From Dietzia lutea (GTDB lineage: Bacteria > Actinomycetota > Actinomycetes > Mycobacteriales > Mycobacteriaceae), in NCBI RefSeq assembly GCF_003096075.1, contig NZ_CP015449.1, positions 3,710,364 to 3,774,363 of the forward strand: DNA of 64,000 bases, given 5' to 3'. The notes under the pieces were generated by a model, which ran no database searches, was not told the origin of the DNA, and saw only the letters and a program-made list of their open reading frames with translations. How positions within the stretch are numbered: the stretch's first letter is position 1; each line of letters begins with the position of its first letter. The position numbers and the translations under genes were made by a program. Positions 4,802 through 13,639 of this stretch are shown here, piece by piece.

Positions 4802-5185
4802 TCAGCTCATGTTCTCCGGGGTCCAGTAGGCGCGCATGGAGGAGACCTTGCCCTCGGCGTCGTGGACCATGAGGTCCCACACGTTGATGGTGGCCTTGGA
4901 GCCCCCGTCGAAGTGGGTGGTGATCTCGAAGTTGAACAGCAGGTCGTTGCCGCACACGCGGGTCTCGAGGACCTTCGCCTCGATCTTCAACGCGACGACG
5001 CTGGAGTAGAAGGCGCGGATCGCCTCCGCGCCCTCGTGCACGGTGCCGCCGCCGACGGGGTCCTCGACGGTGGCGTCGTCGGCGTAGAGGGCCATGACGG
5101 CCTCGAGGTCGCCGGCGACGAGCGCGTCGACGTAGGACTGCGCGGTGGCGCGGATCTGCTCGGGTGCGGTGGCTGCGGCGCTCAT
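4802..5185 (-). CDS. steroid delta(5)-isomerase (ketosteroid isomerase, KSI)
   Basis: A 127-residue NTF2-fold protein that resembles Pseudomonas putida KSI over most of its length. YADDATVEDPVGG corresponds to YADDATVEDPFGQ, and VWDLMVHD...MRAYWTPENMS to VIDVMRFD...MQAYWSEVNLS. The catalytic residues appear conserved: Tyr18, Asp42 and Asp104 correspond to KSI Tyr16, Asp40 and Asp103. It should move the C5-C6 double bond of 3-keto-delta5 steroids to C4-C5. An AAAGG ribosome site precedes ATG 5185. Upstream is a near-perfect KstR-type operator (5228-5241), which ties it to steroid catabolism. Confidence 0.85.
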   Translation of the reverse strand: MSAAATAPEQIRATAQSYVDALVAGDLEAVMALYADDATVEDPVGGGTVHEGAEAIRAFYSSVVALKIEAKVLETRVCGNDLLFNFEITTHFDGGSKATINVWDLMVHDAEGKVSSMRAYWTPENMS

Positions 5186-5227
5186 GGTGGGTGGCCTTTC
5201 GGTGACGACGACGAGGTGACCCGAGCC

Positions 5228-5241
5228 TAGAACGTGTTCTC
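5228..5241 (-). promoter_or_regulatory. KstR-type operator upstream of ketosteroid isomerase
   Basis: TAGAACGTGTTCTC fits the KstR consensus TNNAACNNGTTNNA in seven of eight fixed positions (last A is C). On the minus strand it reads GAGAACACGTTCTA and runs into a -10-like TAGGCT, 43 bp upstream of the KSI start. The arrangement is the same as at 12742-12755. KstR is the TetR-family repressor of cholesterol catabolism in mycobacteria and rhodococci; no kstR gene is in this window. Confidence 0.65.
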
Positions 5242-5366
5242 ACGCGGCGGGCGCGCACCGGACCATTTTCTGCTGCGCCTCCTCGTCGGTTGCGCCACTT
5301 GCGCCCCAGCCCTACCCTCCTCTCACGACTGTCACAGGGCCGGCGCGCCCGGGGAGCGGAGTACGC

Positions 5367-6800
5367 ATGTCCACACAGCAGACGTCCCGACAGCCGTCGG
5401 ACGAGGAGTCGTTCCACACCGGCCGGGTGGTGATCATCTCCCTGGTCGCCGCGCTCGGCGGTTTCCTCTTCGGGTTCGACACAGCGGTGATCAACGGCGC
5501 GGTCGACGCGGTGCAGCAGGACTTCGGTATCGGTGCCGGGCTGATCGGGTTCACGGTCTCCTCGGCGTTGCTCGGGTGCATCCTCGGCGCCTACCTGGCG
5601 GGGCGACTGGCCGATCGGTGGGGCCGCACCCGCGTCATGGTCCTGGCGGCGGCGTTGTTCCTCCTCAGCGCGCTCGGTTCCGGGTTCGCGTCCGGCCCGT
5701 GGGACCTCATCGCCTGGCGCGTCCTCGGCGGGCTCGGCGTGGGCGCGGCGTCCGTCATCGCTCCGGCGTACATCGCCGAGGTGGCGCCGCCCGCGATCCG
5801 TGGCCGACTCGGTTCGCTCCAACAGCTGGCGATCGTCTCGGGCATCTTCGTCGCCCTGCTCTCGGACGCGTGGCTGGCCGGAGTGGCCGGCGGCGCGATC
5901 GAGGAGCTGTGGTTCGGGGCGGCCGCGTGGCGGTGGATGTTCTGGGCGGAGGTGATCCCCGCGGTGGCCTACGGGTTCCTGGCGCTGATGATCCCCGAAT
6001 CGCCGCGCTACCTGGTGGGCAGGGGGATGGTCGACGAGGCCAAGCGCGTCCTGCGTTCCATCCAGGAGGGCGGGATCGACACCCGCATCCGCGAGATCCG
6101 CGCGACCGTCCGCGAGGACCGCCGCCAGTCGTGGCGGGACCTGATCCGCCCGGGCGGCTGGAACTTCCTGCCCATCGTGTGGATCGGCATCATCCTGTCG
6201 GTCTTCCAGCAGGCCGTGGGCATCAACGTGATCTTCTACTACTCCACCACGCTGTGGCAGTCGGTCGGCTTCGCCGAGGAGGACGCGTTCACCCAGTCGG
6301 TCATCACGTCGGTGACGAACATCGTCGTCACGATCGTGGCGATCTCGCTCATCGACAAGATCGGTCGCCGCCGACTGCTCATGATCGGCTCGGTCGGCAT
6401 GACCATCTGCCTGGCGGTGATGGCGGCGATGTTCAGCCAGGCCACCATGGTCGCCGGGCCGGACGGCGAACTCGCCCCGCAGCTCGGCGACACCCCGGGG
6501 CTCATCGCCCTCATCGCCGCGAACGGATTCGTCGTGTTCTTCGGGATGTCGTGGGGCCCGGCGGTGTGGGTGCTGCTCGGCGAGATGTTCAACAACCGGA
6601 TCCGCTCCACCGCGCTGGGGTTGGCGGCGGCCGCGCAGTGGCTGGCGAACTTCGCCGTGTCGACCGCATTCCCGCCGATGGCCGAGTTCAGCCTGCCGTT
6701 CACCTACGGCTTCTACGCGGTCGCGGCGCTGCTGTCGCTGCTGTTCGTGGCGCGGTTCATCCCCGAGACGACCGGCCGCTCGCTGGAGGAGATGGAGTAG
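5367..6800 (+). CDS. MFS sugar porter (proton-coupled sugar transporter)
   Basis: A 477-residue, 12-helix inner-membrane transporter of the sugar porter family. Visible signatures are GGFLFGFDTAVINGA in TM1, GRLADRWGRTR after TM2, PESPRYLVGRG at the end of TM6, QQAVGINVIFYYS in TM7, DKIGRRRLL between TM8 and TM9, and PETTGRSLEEME at the C terminus. These match XylE/GalP/GlcP-type symporters; the sugar cannot be told. It stands alone, convergent with the GyrI-like gene 7 bp beyond. Confidence 0.9.
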   Translation: MSTQQTSRQPSDEESFHTGRVVIISLVAALGGFLFGFDTAVINGAVDAVQQDFGIGAGLIGFTVSSALLGCILGAYLAGRLADRWGRTRVMVLAAALFLLSALGSGFASGPWDLIAWRVLGGLGVGAASVIAPAYIAEVAPPAIRGRLGSLQQLAIVSGIFVALLSDAWLAGVAGGAIEELWFGAAAWRWMFWAEVIPAVAYGFLALMIPESPRYLVGRGMVDEAKRVLRSIQEGGIDTRIREIRATVREDRRQSWRDLIRPGGWNFLPIVWIGIILSVFQQAVGINVIFYYSTTLWQSVGFAEEDAFTQSVITSVTNIVVTIVAISLIDKIGRRRLLMIGSVGMTICLAVMAAMFSQATMVAGPDGELAPQLGDTPGLIALIAANGFVVFFGMSWGPAVWVLLGEMFNNRIRSTALGLAAAAQWLANFAVSTAFPPMAEFSLPFTYGFYAVAALLSLLFVARFIPETTGRSLEEME

Positions 6801-6807
6801 CCCGGGG

Positions 6808-7419
6808 TCAGGCCTCGTCGTCGGGGGTGCGCACCGCGCAGAAAAGGTCGGTGCGCAGCGTGGCCGGGTCCATGTCGGGCGAGGGTTCGGTGACATACGA
6901 CTCCCAGAACGGCAGCCCGGGCGCGCGTCCCGTCCCCGCGATCTCGCCCATGAAGTCGCCCCAGGCCGGCCCGAGGTCGTCGTACGAGCCGACGTGGCTG
7001 ATCACGGCGATCTCGCCGGCCGGCAGCTCGGAGGCGACGACCCGTCGACCGTCGGCCTCGATCGGTTCCGCCCCAACCTGCTCGGCCAGCGGGGCACGGA
7101 GCGGGAAGCCGATCTCCAGGTCGACCACCGAGTCGGGCCCCTCGACCGCGTCGGTGTAGAGGGCGATGGGCGGGCCCGCGGGAGCCAGGCCGGCCTCGAA
7201 CGCGCGCGGCAGGACGGTCCCGAAGACGGAGTCGAACACCCCGGTCAGCTCCGACATCGGCACGCCCGTCACGCGGACCACGGCGGTGGGCACGGCGGGC
7301 ACGCGCAGCAACCGGATCCCGTCGATCGGGTCCGCGCCCAGGGCGGGGTAACCAGACGGGGGGTCGGCCGGCGCCGTGGGTGCCTGACCGTGTGACGAGG
7401 AGGATGACGACGACGACAT
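6808..7419 (-). CDS. GyrI-like small-molecule-binding domain protein
   Basis: A 203-residue protein with a Ser-rich start (MSSSSSSSSHG) followed by one GyrI-like/AraC effector-binding domain. Visible elements are LLRVPAVPTAVVRVTGVPMSELTGVFDSVF, an ALYTDAVEG strand, and the late SHVGSYDDLGPAWGDFMGEI helix, which is the usual family ending. There is no DNA-binding domain. Such proteins bind small ligands and some hydrolyse cyclopropanoids (family knowledge). ATG 7419 has GGAAGGG upstream; the frame upstream of it is unsupported. Confidence 0.75.
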   Translation of the reverse strand: MSSSSSSSSHGQAPTAPADPPSGYPALGADPIDGIRLLRVPAVPTAVVRVTGVPMSELTGVFDSVFGTVLPRAFEAGLAPAGPPIALYTDAVEGPDSVVDLEIGFPLRAPLAEQVGAEPIEADGRRVVASELPAGEIAVISHVGSYDDLGPAWGDFMGEIAGTGRAPGLPFWESYVTEPSPDMDPATLRTDLFCAVRTPDDEA

Positions 7420-7592
7420 GGTGTGCCCTTCCGACGACGAGGTGCCTGCTCCCAGTGTGCGCTGCGATCGGGACGAGGGGAAGACCCGCCGAGCAGCAGG
7501 GCGAGCCTCTCCGCGCCGACGGGTGCACCCGGCGCCCGGGGGTACGGCCGGCGAGGGATGCAGCCGACGCCCGGCGGGGGAACACTGGGGGC

Positions 7593-7775
7593 ATGCCCCA
7601 CTACCGTCTCCACACCCCCGACCAGACGATCGGTCTCGGCGAGCACGAGACCGCCCAGCAGGCCCTCGAGTCCGCCGTGTCCGGTCATCGTGAGACCCGG
7701 CCCGCCGACGGGTCCCTCGAGGTCCAGGTGGGCGAGGCGTGGCACTCCGTCGACATCGAGGGGGACATGCCGTGA
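7593..7775 (+). CDS. small hypothetical protein translationally coupled to an MBL-fold gene
   Basis: A 60-residue acidic protein (MPHYRLHTPDQTIGLGEHETAQQALESAV...) that I do not recognise. It may form a small alpha/beta fold, with a strand, the helix HETAQQALESAV, then two strands (SLEVQVG, AWHSVDIEG). A G-rich site (GGGGG) precedes the ATG. Its TGA overlaps the GTG start of the next gene (GTGA at 7772-7775), so the two are probably co-translated and may work together. Confidence 0.65.
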   Translation: MPHYRLHTPDQTIGLGEHETAQQALESAVSGHRETRPADGSLEVQVGEAWHSVDIEGDMP

Positions 7776-8671
7776 GCGCGGCCCGCGACGCCGGAGCCGA
7801 CCGCAATTCTCACGGGACGGGCCCGGATTCGGTGACCCAGTGCGCGACGTGCGGGGTCGAGCGGGCGGAGCCCCTGCCCGAGGTGTGTCCGATCTGCGCG
7901 GACGAGCGCCAGTACGTGCCCGTCTCCGGGCAGCGCTGGACCACGCCCGAGCAGTCGCGGGCGGCGGGTGCGTCCATCGAGTTCACCGAGCGCGAGACCG
8001 ACGTGATCGGTCTGGAGCAGAAGAACTGTCCCGGGATCGGCCAGCGGCCGTCGCTCATCCGGACCGACCACGGGAACGTCCTGGTCGAGGTCCCGAACTA
8101 CATCAGCGACGAGGCGGTCGCGGCGATCCGCGGCTGGGGCGGACTGTCGGCGATCATCGCCTCGCACCCGCACATGTACGGGCTGCAGTCGTTGTGGTCG
8201 GCGGCGTTCGACGACTGCCCGGTGTACGTCTCCGCTCCGGACGAGCAGTGGCTGGGCCTGCGACCGCGCAAGACGATCGTGTGGGGCGGGGGCCACGCGA
8301 CGGACCCGGCCGACGGCGGCGAGATCGAGATTTTGCCCGGCGTGCGGGCGTCGCAGCCGGGCGGCCACTTTCCCGGCAGCGTGGTCGTGCACTGGACCGC
8401 TCCGGACGGCGAGGGGGTGCTGTTCAGCGGCGACACGATCGGCACGGTCGCCGACCGGGAGTGGGTGACGTTCATGCGGTCGTTTCCCAACTGGATGCCG
8501 CTGTCCGGTGCGGTGGTGCGCCGGATCGCCGAGCACGTCTCGCGGTACGACTACGACAGGCTCTACAGCAACTTCGGCGGGTTCGTTCCCCGGGACGCGC
8601 GGGCCGCGGTGCAGCGGTCGGCCGAGCGCTACGCGGCATGGGTCGACGGCGAGTACGACCACCTCACCTAG
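7772..8671 (+). CDS. MBL-fold metallo-hydrolase-like protein with N-terminal zinc ribbon
   Basis: A 299-residue protein. Residues ~20-42 carry two CxxC pairs (CATC and CPIC), a rubredoxin-like zinc knuckle. The rest follows the metallo-beta-lactamase order: IIASHPHMYG, then HFPGSVVVHW, then LFSGDTIGT. The canonical HxHxDH metal motif is degenerate (HPHMYG lacks the Asp-His pair), so hydrolase activity is uncertain. Start GTG 7772 overlaps the stop of the 60-aa gene. The 3' end overlaps the convergent ArsR gene by 8 bp. Confidence 0.7.
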   Translation: MSAARDAGADRNSHGTGPDSVTQCATCGVERAEPLPEVCPICADERQYVPVSGQRWTTPEQSRAAGASIEFTERETDVIGLEQKNCPGIGQRPSLIRTDHGNVLVEVPNYISDEAVAAIRGWGGLSAIIASHPHMYGLQSLWSAAFDDCPVYVSAPDEQWLGLRPRKTIVWGGGHATDPADGGEIEILPGVRASQPGGHFPGSVVVHWTAPDGEGVLFSGDTIGTVADREWVTFMRSFPNWMPLSGAVVRRIAEHVSRYDYDRLYSNFGGFVPRDARAAVQRSAERYAAWVDGEYDHLT

Positions 8672-9137
8672 AGGCGCCCGGGCCCGACCCGCGCTCGCCG
8701 GACTCGGGTCCCTCACCGGAGCCGACACCCTCGGCGCGCTCGGCCGCCTCGCCGGACACCGCGCGCTCGGCCGCCTCGGCACGCTCCATGCGCTCGGCGC
8801 GCTCCTTGACCTGCGCGAGCCGGTGGTCCCACCCCTGCGACACCGCGCCGAGGAGGTCGGAGATCTCCCGGATACGGTCGGGCCGCACGGCGTGTACCTG
8901 TCGACGCTGATGCGCTCGCGCGTGCACGAGCCCTGAGTCGGTGAGTATGCGCAGGTGCTTGGCGACCGCCTGTCGGCTCACGCCCAGATCACGGGCCACG
9001 GCACCGGCGTCGTCGGGCCGATCGGCGAGTCGGACGAGGACCCGCCGGCGGGTCCGGTCCGCGAGGGCGCCGAACACACCGTCCGCCTCCACGCTGAGCA
9101 GCCGGTCGTGCGGGTCCTCTCCGTTCCGACTGCTCAT
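8664..9137 (-). CDS. ArsR-family transcriptional regulator
   Basis: A 157-residue protein. The winged helix lies in residues ~15-90: VFGALADRTRRRVLVRLADRP, ARDLGVSRQAVAKHLRILTDSGLVHARAHQRRQVHAV. No metal-site cysteines are seen, which fits the SdpR/YgaV-like subgroup paired with SRPBCC proteins. The C-terminal ~50 residues are a Glu/Ala/Gly-rich tail (ERAERMERAEAAERA) that may form a coiled coil and is unusual for ArsR proteins. ATG overlaps the stop of the SRPBCC gene (ATGA, 9134-9137), so the two form one operon. Confidence 0.85.
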   Translation of the reverse strand: MSSRNGEDPHDRLLSVEADGVFGALADRTRRRVLVRLADRPDDAGAVARDLGVSRQAVAKHLRILTDSGLVHARAHQRRQVHAVRPDRIREISDLLGAVSQGWDHRLAQVKERAERMERAEAAERAVSGEAAERAEGVGSGEGPESGERGSGPGASR

Positions 9138-9637
9138 CCGCCGCCCTCGGCGCGTACCCGCGCGAGCTCCAGCTCGGACACCCAGCCCTCGGAGTTCTCC
9201 TCGAATCGCCGGCGCCGGACGGCCGCGTCGTCGTGCAGACCCGCGAACCCGGTCTCGCGGACCGTCAGGACGACGCCCGATCCGTGGTCCTCGATCATGA
9301 ACTCGACCAGGTTGGCCTGCGCCTCGTCGACCTCTCCGGCCATGCCACCGAGCCACCGGAACACCGCGCGACGCGGCGGGTCGAGCTCAACCGTGCCGAT
9401 CGTGAACTCGCCATGCACCGGGTCGACGACGCGCGACACGTCGCCCTCGGTCGTGATCTCGTGATCGGTCCACGTGCCGTCGTTGATGAACCATCCCGGC
9501 TCCGACACGATGGCCCAGACCGTCTGCACGTCGGCCTCGATATGGACGCTGCGGACGATCTCGTCGGGCACGTCATCGCTGGTCAGTCCCGCTCCGGGCG
9601 CGCTATCGCCGTCGACGGGCACGGTGTTCTCGCTCAT
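9134..9637 (-). CDS. SRPBCC (AHSA1-like) domain protein
   Basis: A 167-residue protein with a START/SRPBCC fold: EIVRSVHIEADVQTVWAIVSEPGWFINDGTW at residues ~27-57 and AVFRWLGG then VLTVRETGFAGL in the later strands and helix. It is probably a hydrophobic-ligand binding protein. In many bacteria an AHSA1 gene is paired with an ArsR regulator as here, though usually with the regulator first; here the SRPBCC gene comes first. The start follows a GGGAGAGGAGAG run. A candidate ArsR operator lies at 9730-9747. Confidence 0.8.
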   Translation of the reverse strand: MSENTVPVDGDSAPGAGLTSDDVPDEIVRSVHIEADVQTVWAIVSEPGWFINDGTWTDHEITTEGDVSRVVDPVHGEFTIGTVELDPPRRAVFRWLGGMAGEVDEAQANLVEFMIEDHGSGVVLTVRETGFAGLHDDAAVRRRRFEENSEGWVSELELARVRAEGGG

Positions 9638-9729
9638 CGGGCTCTCCTCTCCCCCGAGGTGCCTCCCGCTCGGTGAGTTGGTGTCGCGGCTGCACCTGCC
9701 CTAACACGATGACACGTCGTGCGCTCGAG

Positions 9730-9747
9730 TGCAACCGTTCAGTTGCA
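9730..9747. promoter_or_regulatory. inverted repeat, candidate ArsR operator
   Basis: TGCAAC-CGTTCA-GTTGCA is a perfect 6-6-6 inverted repeat 93 bp upstream of the SRPBCC/ArsR operon start (9637). Its size suits a dimeric winged-helix repressor. Assignment to the ArsR protein is inference from proximity. Confidence 0.5.
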
Positions 9748-9766
9748 GATGAGCGTGCCGACGGCC

Positions 9767-9840
9767 GAACGCGGTCAGCGCGGGACTACGCGGTCGGCGC
9801 TGGTCGGCGCGGTCACCGCCTGGCGAACGCGGTCAGCGCG
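9767..9840. repeat. 16-bp direct repeat at the SDR stop codon
   Basis: GAACGCGGTCAGCGCG occurs at 9767-9782 and 9825-9840. The second copy includes the TGA (complement of 9833-9835) of the downstream SDR gene. The sequence between them is built of similar CGCGGTCGGCGC words, suggesting local slippage duplication of the gene's end. Confidence 0.65.
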
Positions 9841-10747
9841 ACGCCGACGCGGCGGCCGTCTCGGCCGCGGCGAACTCCCAGAACCGCGCTGCCGCCGCGG
9901 GGTCAGAGGCCTCGGCGCTCCGACCGATGAGTGTGGGCATGCCGCGCAGGTGTCTCATCGCGTCGGGACCGGTGTAACTGCACGGCGGCAGCGGCCGGGT
10001 CGCGGCGCTCATGGTCGTCAGGGCCGCCTGCGCCGCGGGCTGGGCGAAGAGGGAGCAGACGCCGGTGACTATTTTGTCCAGCGTCGCGTTACCGGTCGCG
10101 TTGGATATCCCGGTGGCGGCCCACCCGGGGTGCGTGAGCTGGACGTCGACCCCGGCCCTGCCGGCCTCGGCACGTCCGTCGCGCAGCCGCCGCTCGAGCT
10201 CGAGCCCCCACAGCATGTCTCCGAGTTTGGACTGCGCGTACGCCGCCGCGGACGTCCACCGTCGACGCCGGAAGTGCGGGTCGTCGCCGTCGAAGGTGCC
10301 CGCGTGGTGTGCATTGGACGCGACGATCACCACGCGCCGACGCACCACGGGCAGCAGCAGGTTCGTGAACAGAAACGGGCCCAGCACGTTGACGCCGAGC
10401 AGCATCTCGAACCCGTCCGCGGTCTCACGCCGACGAGACGTGATGGCTCCCGCGTTGTTGACCAGCACGTCGATCTCCTCGCCGCCCTGGCCGACCTCGC
10501 CGGTCAGTTCGCCGGCCGCGCGTCGCACGCTCGCGAGGGAGGCCAGATCCGTCTCCACGACGCGCGCGTCCCCGGGGAGTTCGGACGCCACCTGACGACC
10601 GCGTGCGGAGTCCCGGACCGCGAGGATCACCCGCGCCCCGTGCCTGGACGCCGACCGCACGGTGTCGAGGCCGACTCCGCTCGTCGATCCGGTGACGAGC
10701 CACGTCTGGCCGGTGAGGTCGGGGATATCGATCTGCTTGTGCGCCAC
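9833..10747 (-). CDS. short-chain dehydrogenase, retinol-dehydrogenase-like
   Basis: A 304-residue SDR. Cofactor motif WLVTGSTSGVG (residues ~15-25), NNAG near 98, catalytic Tyr/Lys in YAQSK, and HPGWAATG after it follow the retinol dehydrogenase/WWOX-like subgroup. The substrate is unknown. The open frame continues upstream, but GTG 10747 (reading MAHKQIDIPDLTGQ) is the natural start for this subgroup; no strong ribosome site is visible there. The 408-bp gap upstream separates it from a divergent lipase. Confidence 0.75.
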   Translation of the reverse strand: MAHKQIDIPDLTGQTWLVTGSTSGVGLDTVRSASRHGARVILAVRDSARGRQVASELPGDARVVETDLASLASVRRAAGELTGEVGQGGEEIDVLVNNAGAITSRRRETADGFEMLLGVNVLGPFLFTNLLLPVVRRRVVIVASNAHHAGTFDGDDPHFRRRRWTSAAAYAQSKLGDMLWGLELERRLRDGRAEAGRAGVDVQLTHPGWAATGISNATGNATLDKIVTGVCSLFAQPAAQAALTTMSAATRPLPPCSYTGPDAMRHLRGMPTLIGRSAEASDPAAAARFWEFAAAETAAASASR

Positions 10748-11155
10748 GGCCGAAGCGTACGACCCGGACGCCCGCGCCCGCGCCACTTCGCAGCGGACCC
10801 GGCCGCGCGGACCGGCCCCGCGTGAAGGGCCGCGCGAAGACCGCGTGAGGGCGCGCGACGGGTGCGCGGCGGGCGAGTGAGGAGCGCGCGACGGGCGCGT
10901 GAGTGGCCGCGCCGGCGATCTGGTCGTAACCACCGCGGAAAAGGTCGTAGCCATGTGGGCGAAACGCCGCCGGGGCCACGATGGTGACGTCCAAAAGTTC
11001 GATGATGACGGCCAGACCCGCGGTGGGCCCGCGGGTTTCCGGTCACGTGTCGAACCGGCGGCCCGGTCGGCGCTAGCCGGGACGAAGACGGGCCGCCGAT
11101 TGCGGGCTCGGCGAAGCCGTCCGGTGAGGCGCCGGCGGCGGACTACCCTCCGGGT
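10748..11155. other. intergenic region with a dispersed hairpin repeat
   Basis: A 408-bp non-coding gap between divergent SDR and lipase genes. It starts with an extremely GC-rich stretch of gcgcg words, then contains copy A of the dispersed element (10915-10996, minus orientation), then a GC-rich arm pair around CCCGCGG...CCGCGGG. No clear -10/-35 pair for the lipase could be assigned. Confidence 0.5.
10915..10996 (-). repeat. dispersed ~83-bp element, copy A
   Basis: Read on the minus strand this aligns without gaps to 25300-25382, about 58 of 83 positions identical by my count. Shared blocks are TTGGACGT, ACCAT, TTTCGCC, ACATGG and TGG-TAC. The arms (GGACGTCACCAT... and ...CATGGCTACGACC) form an imperfect hairpin. 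A TTG-initiated frame runs through it, but codon third positions are no more variable than the others, so a nucleic-acid element is likelier than a gene. Confidence 0.6.
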
Positions 11156-12457
11156 ATGAACTCCCTCACCTCCACGAGAGTTTCGCGGACGCTTTCGGCG
11201 GCGGCTGCGGCCCTCGTCGTCGTCGCCCCTCTCACCGCCCCCACCGCCGGCGCGCAGCCCGCTGCAGTCGTCGCCCCGGTCGTCGCGCCGGCCGTCGCCG
11301 CGCACGACGTTCCCGGCGCGACGACGGCGGCGCCCTACGCCGACACCACCGCGAATCCGGCACCCACCTGGTCCGGACTCGACACCCGCGAATGGGCTCG
11401 GCCGATCCCCGCGCCGGGGGTCGCGGCGGAGACCGTCCCGCTCGACCCGTCACTCTCGCTGGCGCAGGCCGGACGGGCCGTGCGGCAGGTCTACGGCACG
11501 ATCGACCAGCACGGCCGGCCCGCGGTCTCCGGAAGCGCGGTGTTCCTCCCCCACGGTGCCGCGCCGGAGGGCGGCTGGCCGGTCATCGCGTGGGCGCACG
11601 GCACCACCGGCCTGGGCGACGACTGCGCGCCCTCCACCCAGCCCCGCTCCGAGCGTGACGCCGAGTACCTCGGCCACTGGCTCGACCGGGGCTACGCCGT
11701 GGTCGCCTCCGACTACGTGGGCCTGGGCACGCCCGGGCTGCTCAGCTACCTCAACGGGCCCGCCACCGGCCAGGCGATCGTCGACTCGGTGATCGCCGCA
11801 CGCTCGGCCGACCTGCCCCTGTCCCCCACCTGGGCGCTGGTCGGCCAATCGCAGGGCGCCGGGGCCGCGCTCAACACCGCGGTCCGCGCCACCGAACTCG
11901 GCGCGCCCGACGGCCTGGACTACCGCGGCGTCGTGGCGACGGGTGCCCCGGCGAACATCGAGCACATCTTCCAGTGGGGCGGGCCCGGCTTTCCGCCCGT
12001 GCAGCTACCGACCGGACTCAACGTGTACGCGATGTACATCCTCGCGGGGTTTCGCGATCAGCACCCCGAGCTCGACATCAACGGCTACCTCACGCCGGCC
12101 GGGCGCGAGATGGTCGACGCCGCCGAGACCCTCTGCTACGCGGCGATGCGAGAGAAGGTGGGCGGATTTCAGATCTCGCAGGCGCTCTCGCGGCCCCTGC
12201 AGGAGATCCCCGACGTGTTCGGCCACCTGCGCCGCTACATGGGTACGCCGACCACCGGGTACGACCGGCCCGTGTTCCTCGGCCAGGGACTGCTCGACCT
12301 GGACGTGCCCGCGCCGTCGGCGTTGTCGCTCGCCGCCGAGATGACGCTCAACCAGCAGCCGCTCGAACTGCGCGTCTACCCGGACCGCGACCACAGCGGG
12401 ACCGTGTACGCCGCAACCCCGGATGCGACCGCGTTCCTGGCGCGGGTGATGGGGTGA
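11156..12457 (+). CDS. secreted lipase/esterase (LIP/DAP2-type family)
   Basis: A 433-residue protein with a clear signal peptide (RVSRTLSAAAAALVVVAPLTAPTAGAQ, cut near residue 34). The mature part follows the secretory lipase family: WAHGTTGLGDDCAPS, YAVVASDYVGLGTPG, nucleophile elbow GQSQGAG with Ser232, and late Asp/His candidates in LLDLDVPAP and DRDHSG. It should hydrolyse ester lipids outside the cell. A second member of the family lies at 15752-17107. ATG 11156 is immediately upstream of the basic n-region. Confidence 0.8.
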   Translation: MNSLTSTRVSRTLSAAAAALVVVAPLTAPTAGAQPAAVVAPVVAPAVAAHDVPGATTAAPYADTTANPAPTWSGLDTREWARPIPAPGVAAETVPLDPSLSLAQAGRAVRQVYGTIDQHGRPAVSGSAVFLPHGAAPEGGWPVIAWAHGTTGLGDDCAPSTQPRSERDAEYLGHWLDRGYAVVASDYVGLGTPGLLSYLNGPATGQAIVDSVIAARSADLPLSPTWALVGQSQGAGAALNTAVRATELGAPDGLDYRGVVATGAPANIEHIFQWGGPGFPPVQLPTGLNVYAMYILAGFRDQHPELDINGYLTPAGREMVDAAETLCYAAMREKVGGFQISQALSRPLQEIPDVFGHLRRYMGTPTTGYDRPVFLGQGLLDLDVPAPSALSLAAEMTLNQQPLELRVYPDRDHSGTVYAATPDATAFLARVMG

Positions 12458-12476
12458 TGCGGTCACGGGTTTATGG

Positions 12477-12492
12477 AGTGATTCAGATCACT
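12477..12492. promoter_or_regulatory. CRP/GlxR-like inverted repeat
   Basis: AGTGATTCAGATCACT has the GTGA-N6-TCAC half-sites of the CRP family (GlxR consensus TGTGANNTANNTCACA, outer bases not matched). It lies 20 bp after the lipase stop and about 280 bp upstream of the HsaD-like gene. cAMP-dependent control of that gene is possible but unproven. Confidence 0.4.
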
Positions 12493-12642
12493 GACGACCG
12501 CCGCCATCCCGTGCGGCCGTCCATTTGGTTCCGCGCATTCGCGCACGTCAGGCCGCGCGCACGGGCGCTAGAACTGCAATCTGCGCAATGATCGTTACAG
12601 ACTTGTCACATGGCGCCACTACGGGTTAGAGTCTCGTCATCG

Positions 12643-12676
12643 CCGCGCGGGGATGTTTCAGGGACTCCCCGCGCGG
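12643..12676 (+). terminator. GC-rich hairpin, probable lipase terminator
   Basis: Perfect 11-bp arms CCGCGCGGGGA / TCCCCGCGCGG with a 12-nt loop, no T-run. Actinobacterial terminators often lack a U-tract. It could instead lie in the leader of the HsaD-like gene. Confidence 0.45.
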
Positions 12677-12741
12677 CTGACATCATTTCGAGGGACGCCG
12701 GGTTCGCCGGGGCCGCGGGATTCCCGGGACATCGCGATTCC

Positions 12742-12755
12742 TAGAACGCGTTCTA
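12742..12755 (+). promoter_or_regulatory. KstR-type operator upstream of HsaD-like hydrolase
   Basis: TAGAACGCGTTCTA matches TNNAACNNGTTNNA at every fixed position and is the core of a perfect 16-bp palindrome (12741-12756). It runs into a -10-like TAGTAC (12753-12758), only 12 bp before ATG 12770, so repressor binding would block RNA polymerase. Same layout as at 5228-5241. Confidence 0.75.
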
Positions 12756-12769
12756 GTACCGTTGAGGCC

Positions 12770-13639
12770 ATGAGCGCCCTCGACTTCGAGTCCACCAGCA
12801 AGACCATCACCGCCGGCCGCTTCGAGCTGCACTACCACGAGGCGGGCGAGCAGAGCGTCGCCGAGCCCGAGAGCGCGGTCCCCGTCCTGTTCCTCCACGG
12901 ATCCGGTCCGGGCGTCACCGCGTGGTCCAACTTCTCCGGCAACTTCCCGGTCTTCGCCGAGCGGTTCCACACCATCCTGCTCGACATGCCGGGCTTCGGG
13001 AAGAGCTCCGACCTGGAGTGGGAGAAGGCCTACCCGATGATCGCCGCCGAGGCGATCGACGCGTTCTGCGAGGCCAAGGGCATCGAGAAGGTCGACATCA
13101 TCGGCAACTCCATGGGCGGCAACGTCGCGTGCGAGACCGCGCTCGCCTACCCGGACCGCGTCCGCAAGATGGCCCTCATGGGCCCGGGCGGCCTGGCCGC
13201 GCCGCTGTTCGCTCCGGACCCCAGCGAGGGCTCGCGCCGGCTGTTCGACTTCCTCGCCGATCCGACCGATGAGAAGATGAGCGCCTGGGTCGACACGATG
13301 GTCGGCAACAAGAAGATCGTCTCCCCCGAACTGATCCGCGCCCGCACCGAGGCCGCGACCGCGCCGGGCGCAGTCGAGCGCATGTACTCGATCTTCGGCT
13401 CGATCCTCAAGCCCGAGAACGCCTACACCCCGCTGTACGCCCGCGCGTCCCAGATCCGCCAGGAGACGCTGCTCATCTGGGGCCGCGACGACCGCATGCT
13501 GCCGTACGAGCAGGCACATTTCGCGTTCCGCCAGCTCCCCAAGGCCGAGCTGCACGCCTTCTCCCGCTGCGGCCACTGGGCCATGATCGAGCAGAAGGAC
13601 AAGTTCGAGCGGCTGGTGATCGACTTCCTGCTCAACTGA
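12770..13639 (+). CDS. HsaD-like meta-cleavage product hydrolase (alpha/beta hydrolase)
   Basis: A 289-residue C-C bond hydrolase related to HsaD, which cleaves the 4,9-DSHA intermediate in steroid ring degradation. FLHGSGPGVTAWSNFSGNFPVFAERFH, NSMGGN, MGPGGLAAPLFAPDPSEGSRRL and LLIWGRDDRMLPYEQA match that family closely. The triad is Ser114, Asp241 and His269; Ser114 has the same number as in HsaD. A related aromatic MCP hydrolase (BphD/CarC type) is the alternative, but the KstR box at 12742 favours steroid catabolism. ATG 12770 follows GAGG. No other hsa gene is adjacent. Confidence 0.8.
   Translation: MSALDFESTSKTITAGRFELHYHEAGEQSVAEPESAVPVLFLHGSGPGVTAWSNFSGNFPVFAERFHTILLDMPGFGKSSDLEWEKAYPMIAAEAIDAFCEAKGIEKVDIIGNSMGGNVACETALAYPDRVRKMALMGPGGLAAPLFAPDPSEGSRRLFDFLADPTDEKMSAWVDTMVGNKKIVSPELIRARTEAATAPGAVERMYSIFGSILKPENAYTPLYARASQIRQETLLIWGRDDRMLPYEQAHFAFRQLPKAELHAFSRCGHWAMIEQKDKFERLVIDFLLN

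What the first reader, a model, noticed from the sequence alone, without database searches (positions are those of the whole stretch)
5228..12755. Two distant genes share the same KstR-box promoter layout, pointing to a dispersed steroid regulon
TAGAACGTGTTCTC (5228-5241, ketosteroid isomerase) and TAGAACGCGTTCTA (12742-12755, HsaD-like hydrolase) fit the KstR consensus TNNAACNNGTTNNA in 7/8 and 8/8 fixed positions. In both, the right half-site merges into a -10-like TAG[GT].C, so the repressor would sit on the core promoter. The genes are the only two whose predicted enzymes fit steroid catabolism by catalytic residues, apart from the P450 at 34 kb. In mycobacteria and rhodococci such genes are usually clustered, so single genes scattered near oriC are unusual.
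Basis: partly seen in the sequence, partly recalled or inferred. Interest (0 to 1): 0.7.

Follow-up and report, generated by a model that had tools for sequence, protein, structure and literature searches.

The report
Steroid regulon recruits replacement hsaD gene
In Dietzia and several related bacteria the steroid-ring hydrolase gene hsaD is missing from its usual operon, and a hydrolase gene of a different lineage, standing alone elsewhere in the genome behind a sequence that matches the binding site of the steroid repressor KstR, likely does its job.

Summary
In detail: TAGAACGTGTTCTC (5228-5241) and TAGAACGCGTTCTA (12742-12755) match the KstR operator in 7/8 and 8/8 fixed positions and overlap -10-like hexamers. 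The genome is a Dietzia. It encodes kstR (323 bits, cut-off 280) in a main cluster (758-848 kb) with kshA, kstD, hsaA, hsaC and mce-type genes, so the regulon is mainly clustered and the window genes are satellites. Both boxes are conserved in the genus: hydrolase 20 of 20 readable loci, ksi 22 of 23 genomes. The larger finding is a gap. In 74 of 151 sampled genomes of the family a full-score HsaD lies directly before hsaC. In 46 others, Dietzia included, there is HsaC but no full-score HsaD. In all 35 non-Dietzia ones hsaA adjoins hsaC, and 32 hold exactly one solo HsaD homologue with a box. One clade of all boxed solo genes is rejected (p-AU 5e-7), and so is the Dietzia-type lineage joined with operon HsaD (6e-6). 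A boxed solo hydrolase has thus probably replaced operon hsaD at least twice. A KstR-assigned ksi is already in print (Nocardioides simplex). Binding, induction and activity are untested.

The parts
4802..5185 (-). ketosteroid isomerase-like gene (127 aa)
   Evidence: best solved relatives are SnoaL-like proteins and steroid delta-isomerases, E 8e-22 to 1e-20; catalytic Tyr, Asp, Asp aligned (residue roles recalled)
5228..5241 (.). KstR-type box TAGAACGTGTTCTC, 7/8 fixed positions
   Evidence: 7/8 box before ksi in 22 of 23 Dietzia genomes
5224..5229 (-). -10-like hexamer TAGGCT overlapping the box (predicted)
   Evidence: sequence; following bases GGCT kept in most Dietzia loci
12742..12755 (.). 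KstR-type box TAGAACGCGTTCTA, 8/8 fixed positions, full palindrome
   Evidence: 8/8 box in 20 of 20 Dietzia loci with readable upstream DNA
12754..12759 (+). -10-like hexamer TAGTAC overlapping the box (predicted); transcript would start within a few nt of the ATG
   Evidence: sequence; hexamers and spacing across loci
12770..13639 (+). solo HsaD-like meta-cleavage-product hydrolase gene (289 aa)
   Evidence: NF045632 308 bits, cut-off 400; solved HsaD 223 bits; catalytic residues intact

Best explanation
The two sites match the operator of the steroid repressor KstR and overlap predicted promoters of a ketosteroid isomerase-like gene and of a solo hydrolase gene, and that hydrolase likely replaces HsaD, whose gene is absent from the hsaA-hsaC-hsaB operon of this Dietzia genome. 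Without steroid, KstR (encoded at 758 kb) would sit on both core promoters and block RNA polymerase. A CoA thioester from cholesterol side-chain breakdown, the inducer known from mycobacteria, would release it there and in the main cluster together. The isomerase would turn delta-5- into delta-4-3-ketosteroid early in the pathway; the hydrolase would cleave the ring-fission product that HsaC makes. Shown: the sequences, their conservation, the absence of a full-score HsaD, the operon without hsaD, and the separate lineage of the hydrolase. Inferred: KstR binding, induction, the near-leaderless transcript and both enzyme activities.
For: kstR over its cut-off with its own perfect box and helix-turn-helix region nearly identical to solved KstR. 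Box before the hydrolase in 20 of 20 readable Dietzia loci and before ksi in 22 of 23 genomes, flanks diverged. Operon without hsaD in 23 of 23 Dietzia genomes, HsaC over cut-off in 23 of 23, HsaD over cut-off in 0 of 23. The orthologue of the window gene is the only HsaD-family hit at E <= 1e-40 in 12 of 23. In 35 other genomes with HsaC but no full-score HsaD, exactly one HsaD homologue is boxed in 32; 29 of the 61 hits are unboxed. Catalytic residues intact in 52 of 52 boxed solo proteins. Inducer: PMC6678751, passage.
Against: No binding, expression or activity data. Three genomes (G037, G049, G125) lack operon hsaD and have no boxed solo gene. G022, a divergent Dietzia, has no ksi box and its hydrolase start is 71 nt from the box. 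The own genome has a second HsaD-family hydrolase at 93 kb (261 bits) that could act too. Two incomplete Dietzia genomes (G008, G021) have no HsaD-family hit at E <= 1e-40. Loose matches to the box are not enriched.
Confidence: 0.78

Rival explanations
1. The window gene is the old operon hsaD that moved elsewhere and then diverged, rather than a replacement from another lineage.
For: Same enzyme family, same repressor box, and the operon copy is absent.
Against: A clade of the Dietzia and g13 solo genes with operon HsaD is rejected (p-AU 5.6e-6; operon HsaD is its own clade). The third residue of the HGxGPG loop is Ser in 52 of 52 solo and Gly in 14 of 14 operon proteins, while 17 of 19 unboxed and 10 of 10 named homologues in the tree also have Ser. 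Unboxed homologues lie in the same subtree. The groups of this AU test were named after the tree was seen.
Confidence: 0.1
2. The boxed hydrolase serves a different step or substrate under KstR, and another hydrolase does the HsaD step.
For: It scores below the HsaD cut-off; other hydrolases exist in some genomes, here at 93 and 94 kb.
Against: 12 of 23 Dietzia genomes have no second hit at E <= 1e-40. The 93 kb gene has no box within 300 nt. The boxed gene is single in 32 of 35 other genomes without operon hsaD.
Confidence: 0.12
3. The boxes are bound by another TetR-type regulator, or are chance.
For: A consensus match is not evidence of binding; loose matches are not enriched and several exact sites are inside genes.
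Against: The same box stands at kstR and before hsaA in 35 of 35 non-Dietzia genomes lacking operon hsaD. It is conserved while flanks diverge. Of 65 HsaD-family genes read in named non-Dietzia loci one reached 7/8, at a poor site 81 nt away (L083).
Confidence: 0.05

Closest known systems
KstR regulon of Mycobacterium smegmatis and M. tuberculosis (Kendall 2007, PMC1995591; passages seen)
   Same: Same 14-bp palindrome, box overlapping the -10 region, divergent kstR/fadE arrangement, main cluster plus further sites (31 motif instances in M. smegmatis, 16 in M. tuberculosis).
   Different: There hsaC and hsaD are both named as regulon genes; here the operon has no hsaD and a solo hydrolase of another lineage has the box. 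The paper passages seen do not mention an isomerase (no occurrence).
Operon HsaD (NF045632; solved HsaD 7zjt, 2vf2)
   Same: Meta-cleavage-product hydrolase fold family; catalytic Ser, Asp, His and the Arg, Asn and Trp columns shared.
   Different: 308 bits against a cut-off of 400, HGSGPG instead of HGGGPG, outside the hsaADCB operon, outside the operon HsaD clade.
KstR-assigned ksi of Nocardioides simplex (PMC7807495, PMC7593942; passages seen)
   Same: Ketosteroid isomerase genes with no cluster letter, assigned to KstR, with '+' marks in the expression columns.
   Different: N. simplex lists hsaD in its main cluster A beside hsaA, hsaB and hsaC.

Membership tests
KstR regulon | a KstR repressor gene in the genome | tested here: met
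   NF033703 equivalog 323.3 bits, cut-off 280; 257.6 bits to solved KstR
KstR regulon | TnnAACnnGTTnnA operator at the promoter | tested here: met
   8/8 (hydrolase) and 7/8 (ksi), conserved in the genus
KstR regulon | KstR binds the site and genes respond to steroid | not testable with these tools
   needs gel shift and expression data
HsaD (operon type, NF045632) | curated family cut-off | tested here: not met
   308.1 bits, cut-off 400
HsaD (operon type, NF045632) | gene in hsaA-hsaD-hsaC-hsaB | tested here: not met
   hsaC follows hsaA directly; window gene about 2.9 Mb away on the same contig
HsaD (operon type, NF045632) | branches with operon HsaD | tested here: not met
   common clade rejected, p-AU 5.6e-6
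meta-cleavage-product hydrolase (works like HsaD) | Ser-Asp-His triad and conserved Arg, Asn, Trp | tested here: met
   52 of 52 boxed solo proteins, window included
meta-cleavage-product hydrolase (works like HsaD) | cleaves the HsaC product | not testable with these tools
   needs enzyme assay or deletion
ketosteroid isomerase | catalytic Tyr, Asp, Asp of Comamonas KSI | tested here: met
   aligned Tyr18, Asp42, Asp104 (residue roles and the positions 14, 38, 99 in Comamonas are recalled)
ketosteroid isomerase | curated family model | tested here: inconclusive
   TIGR02096 (ketosteroid isomerase-related) 28.5 bits, cut-off 97.1; TIGR02246 (SgcJ/EcaC) 35.1, cut-off 33.95; Pfam SnoaL_2 55.2, cut-off 27
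ketosteroid isomerase | isomerase activity | not testable with these tools
   needs enzyme assay

The most novel reading that the evidence does not exclude
One step of a conserved catabolic operon has been handed over, at least twice independently, to a solo hydrolase gene of another lineage whose near-leaderless promoter carries the pathway's own repressor site. KstR thus holds together an operon whose missing gene works in trans across Dietzia, Gordonia, Jongsikchunia and further genera, and HsaD is the exchangeable step of bacterial steroid-ring cleavage.
Probability: 0.65. Interest if true: 0.68.

Novelty: new variant of a known kind. Interest (0 to 1): 0.56.

Why it matters
HsaD cleaves the ring-fission product of the A ring in steroid breakdown. 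If true, 46 of the 120 sampled HsaC-encoding genomes of this family have no operon-type HsaD, and most of them use a boxed solo gene of one of two other lineages. That would correct annotation that looks for hsaD inside the operon, give a clear case of repeated gene replacement inside one regulon, and raise the question why this one step is exchangeable. It also shows how a conserved operator can single out the missing enzyme of a pathway where similarity alone is ambiguous.

Tried and rejected
Mainly dispersed regulon: rejected, 10 of 22 exact sites fall in an 84-kb main cluster. P450 at 34 kb as a regulon member: rejected, no box. Moved operon hsaD: disfavoured by tree and AU tests. The 93 kb hydrolase as the main HsaD: disfavoured, no box within 300 nt, and 12 of 23 Dietzia genomes have only the orthologue of the window gene at E <= 1e-40. 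A single origin of all boxed solo genes: rejected (p-AU 5e-7). An Rfam scan of the window at gathering thresholds gave nothing. Prior description: the searches brought me to no text on a missing operon hsaD in Dietzia or Gordonia. I read passages of eight of the listed papers and one whole section (section 8 of PMC4810484); the library holds open-licence papers only, so this is weak evidence of absence. PMC7067950 names HsaD among the catabolic enzymes of a Gordonia without its location; PMC13422511 lists kstR in Dietzia isolates.

Limits of counts: the tree used 70 rows that I chose: 14 of 30 fetched operon HsaDs, 6 of 20 readable Dietzia genes, 4 of 4 g13 genes, 16 of 28 other boxed solo genes, 19 of 29 unboxed hits, 10 of 65 rows of named non-Dietzia loci, and the own 93 kb gene. 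'Boxed' means at least 7/8 fixed positions within 200 nt upstream (250 nt for hsaA and ksi). Only hits at E <= 1e-55 were considered in the 35 genomes. One Dietzia locus (L163) was dropped from the hydrolase box count because the gene is cut. For ksi outside Dietzia 48 of 51 matches were fetched.
Full report
What was checked. The two 14-mers are present as described: 8/8 at 12742-12755 and 7/8 at 5228-5241 against TnnAACnnGTTnnA, the KstR motif of Kendall et al. 2007 (PMC1995591, passages). That paper reports that the motif partly overlaps the -10 region, so the layout seen here is the known KstR layout. The whole genome holds 22 exact matches against 1 for the reversed control; seven relatives hold 22-30 against 4-10. 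The full palindrome TAGAACNNGTTCTA is seen 6 times where 0.012 are expected from base composition. Against this, loose matches (up to 3 mismatches) are not enriched over the control (75/66 vs 93/74), and 10 of the 11 exact sites outside the cluster and the window lie inside called reading frames.

Where the window lies. It is G000:C1:3710364-3774363 of a 3.9-Mb genome. The hydrolase is 91-96% identical to genes of Dietzia records, among them D. cinnamea and D. massiliensis at 96%, so the organism is a Dietzia. kstR is at 757963-758793, over its curated cut-off and divergent from an acyl-CoA dehydrogenase gene, with a perfect box between them. Its helix-turn-helix region is nearly identical to solved KstR. 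In the same stretch lie kstD, an HsaF-type aldolase, hsaA, hsaC and a steroid thiolase, echA19, mce-type genes and kshA. Ten of the 22 sites fall between 758,810 and 842,257. The regulon is therefore clustered, and the window genes are satellites about 2.9 Mb away in contig coordinates.

The missing gene. In the own genome 33 nt separate hsaA and hsaC, and an HsaB-like gene follows; there is no room for hsaD. In all 23 Dietzia genomes the hsaA and hsaC matches lie 30-97 nt apart. HsaC is over its cut-off in 23 of 23, HsaD in 0 of 23. In 12 of the 23 the orthologue of the window gene is the only HsaD-family hit at E <= 1e-40; two incomplete genomes (G008 and G021, 83% and 64% complete) have none. 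In the own genome the window gene is the best hit (308 bits), followed by genes at 93 kb (261) and 94 kb (87).

Footprint. Upstream of the hydrolase the box is 8/8 in 20 of 20 Dietzia loci with readable upstream DNA (21 examined; L163 is cut). Its free positions vary while the fixed ones stay, and the flanks diverge. The start lies 13-14 nt after the box in 19 of 20 and 71 nt after it in G022. In named Dietzia records all 15 loci that reach upstream show it (these species may overlap with the G genomes). For ksi, 22 of 23 genomes carry a 7/8 box whose first base is G or A; G022 has none, nor has a second homologue in G003. The closest named relatives of the hydrolase outside Dietzia, in Rhodococcus oryzae (62%) and a Propionibacterium MAG (57%), have no box.

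Beyond Dietzia. In a sample of 151 genomes of the same family code, 120 have HsaC over cut-off and 74 HsaD over cut-off. All 74 HsaDs lie directly before hsaC; ten such loci read in full show hsaA-hsaD-hsaC-hsaB. The other 46 HsaC genomes fall in nine genus codes: g1 (Dietzia) 11, g8 10, g10 9, g17 7, g13 4, g28 2, and g12, g16, g24 one each. In the 35 non-Dietzia ones hsaA adjoins hsaC (5-209 nt between matches) and a box of at least 7/8 lies upstream of hsaA, in 35 of 35 for both. I read the upstream DNA of all 61 of their HsaD-family hits at E <= 1e-55: 32 carry a box (25 at 8/8, 7 at 7/8) and 29 do not. The 32 fall one per genome in 32 of 35 genomes; the exceptions are G037, G049 and G125. 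As a control, of 65 HsaD-family genes in named non-Dietzia loci one reached 7/8 (L083, a poor site 81 nt away). G033 (g12) is identical over 15 kb to Jongsikchunia kroppenstedtii, and G161 (g8) is 92% identical over 2.1 kb to Gordonia hankookensis; the other genera remain unnamed.

Lineages. In a 70-row tree operon HsaD, the Dietzia genes, the g13 genes and the other boxed solo genes are each one clade (supports 98-100). Holding all boxed solo genes together is rejected (p-AU 5e-7), as is Dietzia+g13 with operon HsaD (5.6e-6); Dietzia+g13 together is not rejected (0.52). The last two groups were named after the tree was seen. The third residue of the HGxGPG loop is Ser in 52 of 52 boxed solo and Gly in 14 of 14 operon proteins; most unboxed homologues also have Ser (17 of 19). 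The solo genes therefore look like members of other hydrolase lineages, which points to at least two recruitments. The columns of catalytic Ser, Asp and His and of Arg, Asn and Trp are intact in 52 of 52 (their roles are recalled).

Promoter shape. In the larger solo lineage the first in-frame start is 10 nt after the box in 21 of 28 genes, 11 nt in 3, and 14, 7, 5 and 4 nt in one each. With a -10-like hexamer that begins in the last two bases of the box, transcription would begin at or within a few nt of the start codon, a near-leaderless message; the same holds for most Dietzia genes. This is inferred from spacing alone, and the g13 genes (38-62 nt) and G022 differ. ksi in the window has 42 nt between box and ATG.

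ksi. The protein aligns with Comamonas KSI at the catalytic Tyr, Asp and Asp (roles recalled). In the 35 genomes I fetched 48 of 51 homologous places; 35 of 51 BLAST rows had a box of at least 7/8, which I map to at least one boxed ksi in 32 of 35 genomes. The exceptions are again G037, G049 and G125. KstR-assigned ksi genes without a cluster letter are tabulated for Nocardioides simplex (PMC7807495; PMC7593942). This half of the finding is therefore a known kind of regulon member.

Conclusion. Binding, induction and enzyme activity remain untested.

Noticed in passing
window 12642-12676: Strong hairpin CCGCGCGGGGA...TCCCCGCGCGG upstream of the hydrolase box, found in 18 of 20 Dietzia loci; RNA fold z-score -4.05; no Rfam match in the window. 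Function unknown, perhaps a terminator or small RNA.
   Followed up: partly
L025:5077 (G000:C1:2758576): A further perfect palindrome TAGAACTTGTTCTA at the start of a short-chain dehydrogenase gene, a possible third satellite of the KstR regulon.
   Followed up: partly
L118:8791, 8845 and 10439 (G000:C1 near 2.483 Mb): Three near-matches to the box, two of them just upstream of an NDMA-dependent alcohol dehydrogenase gene and one upstream of an alpha/beta hydrolase gene.
   Followed up: partly
L047 7005-13245 (Rhodococcus oryzae): Relatives of both window genes lie about 2 kb apart: hydrolase (62% identical) and ksi (42%), with another hydrolase, HsaB-like and HsaC-like genes nearby, and no box at the hydrolases. 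Possibly the kind of cluster from which the solo genes came.
   Followed up: partly
L029:5504 (G000:C1:461503): Perfect palindrome TGCAACTAGTTGCA between two genes, also present in G011, G012 and G015; it looks like the operator of some other regulator.
   Followed up: no
G037, G049, G125: Three genomes without hsaD in the operon and without a boxed solo HsaD homologue or boxed ksi; G049 and G125 have an HsaA- and HsaC-like cluster beside an unboxed hydrolase.
   Followed up: partly
G000:C1:93268-95018 and 548491-549354: A tandem pair of further meta-cleavage hydrolase genes and a separate HsaC-like dioxygenase (312 bits), suggesting another ring-cleavage route in this Dietzia.
   Followed up: no
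G000:C1:819502-819885: A second, distant ksi-like stretch (34% identical) inside the main steroid cluster.
   Followed up: no
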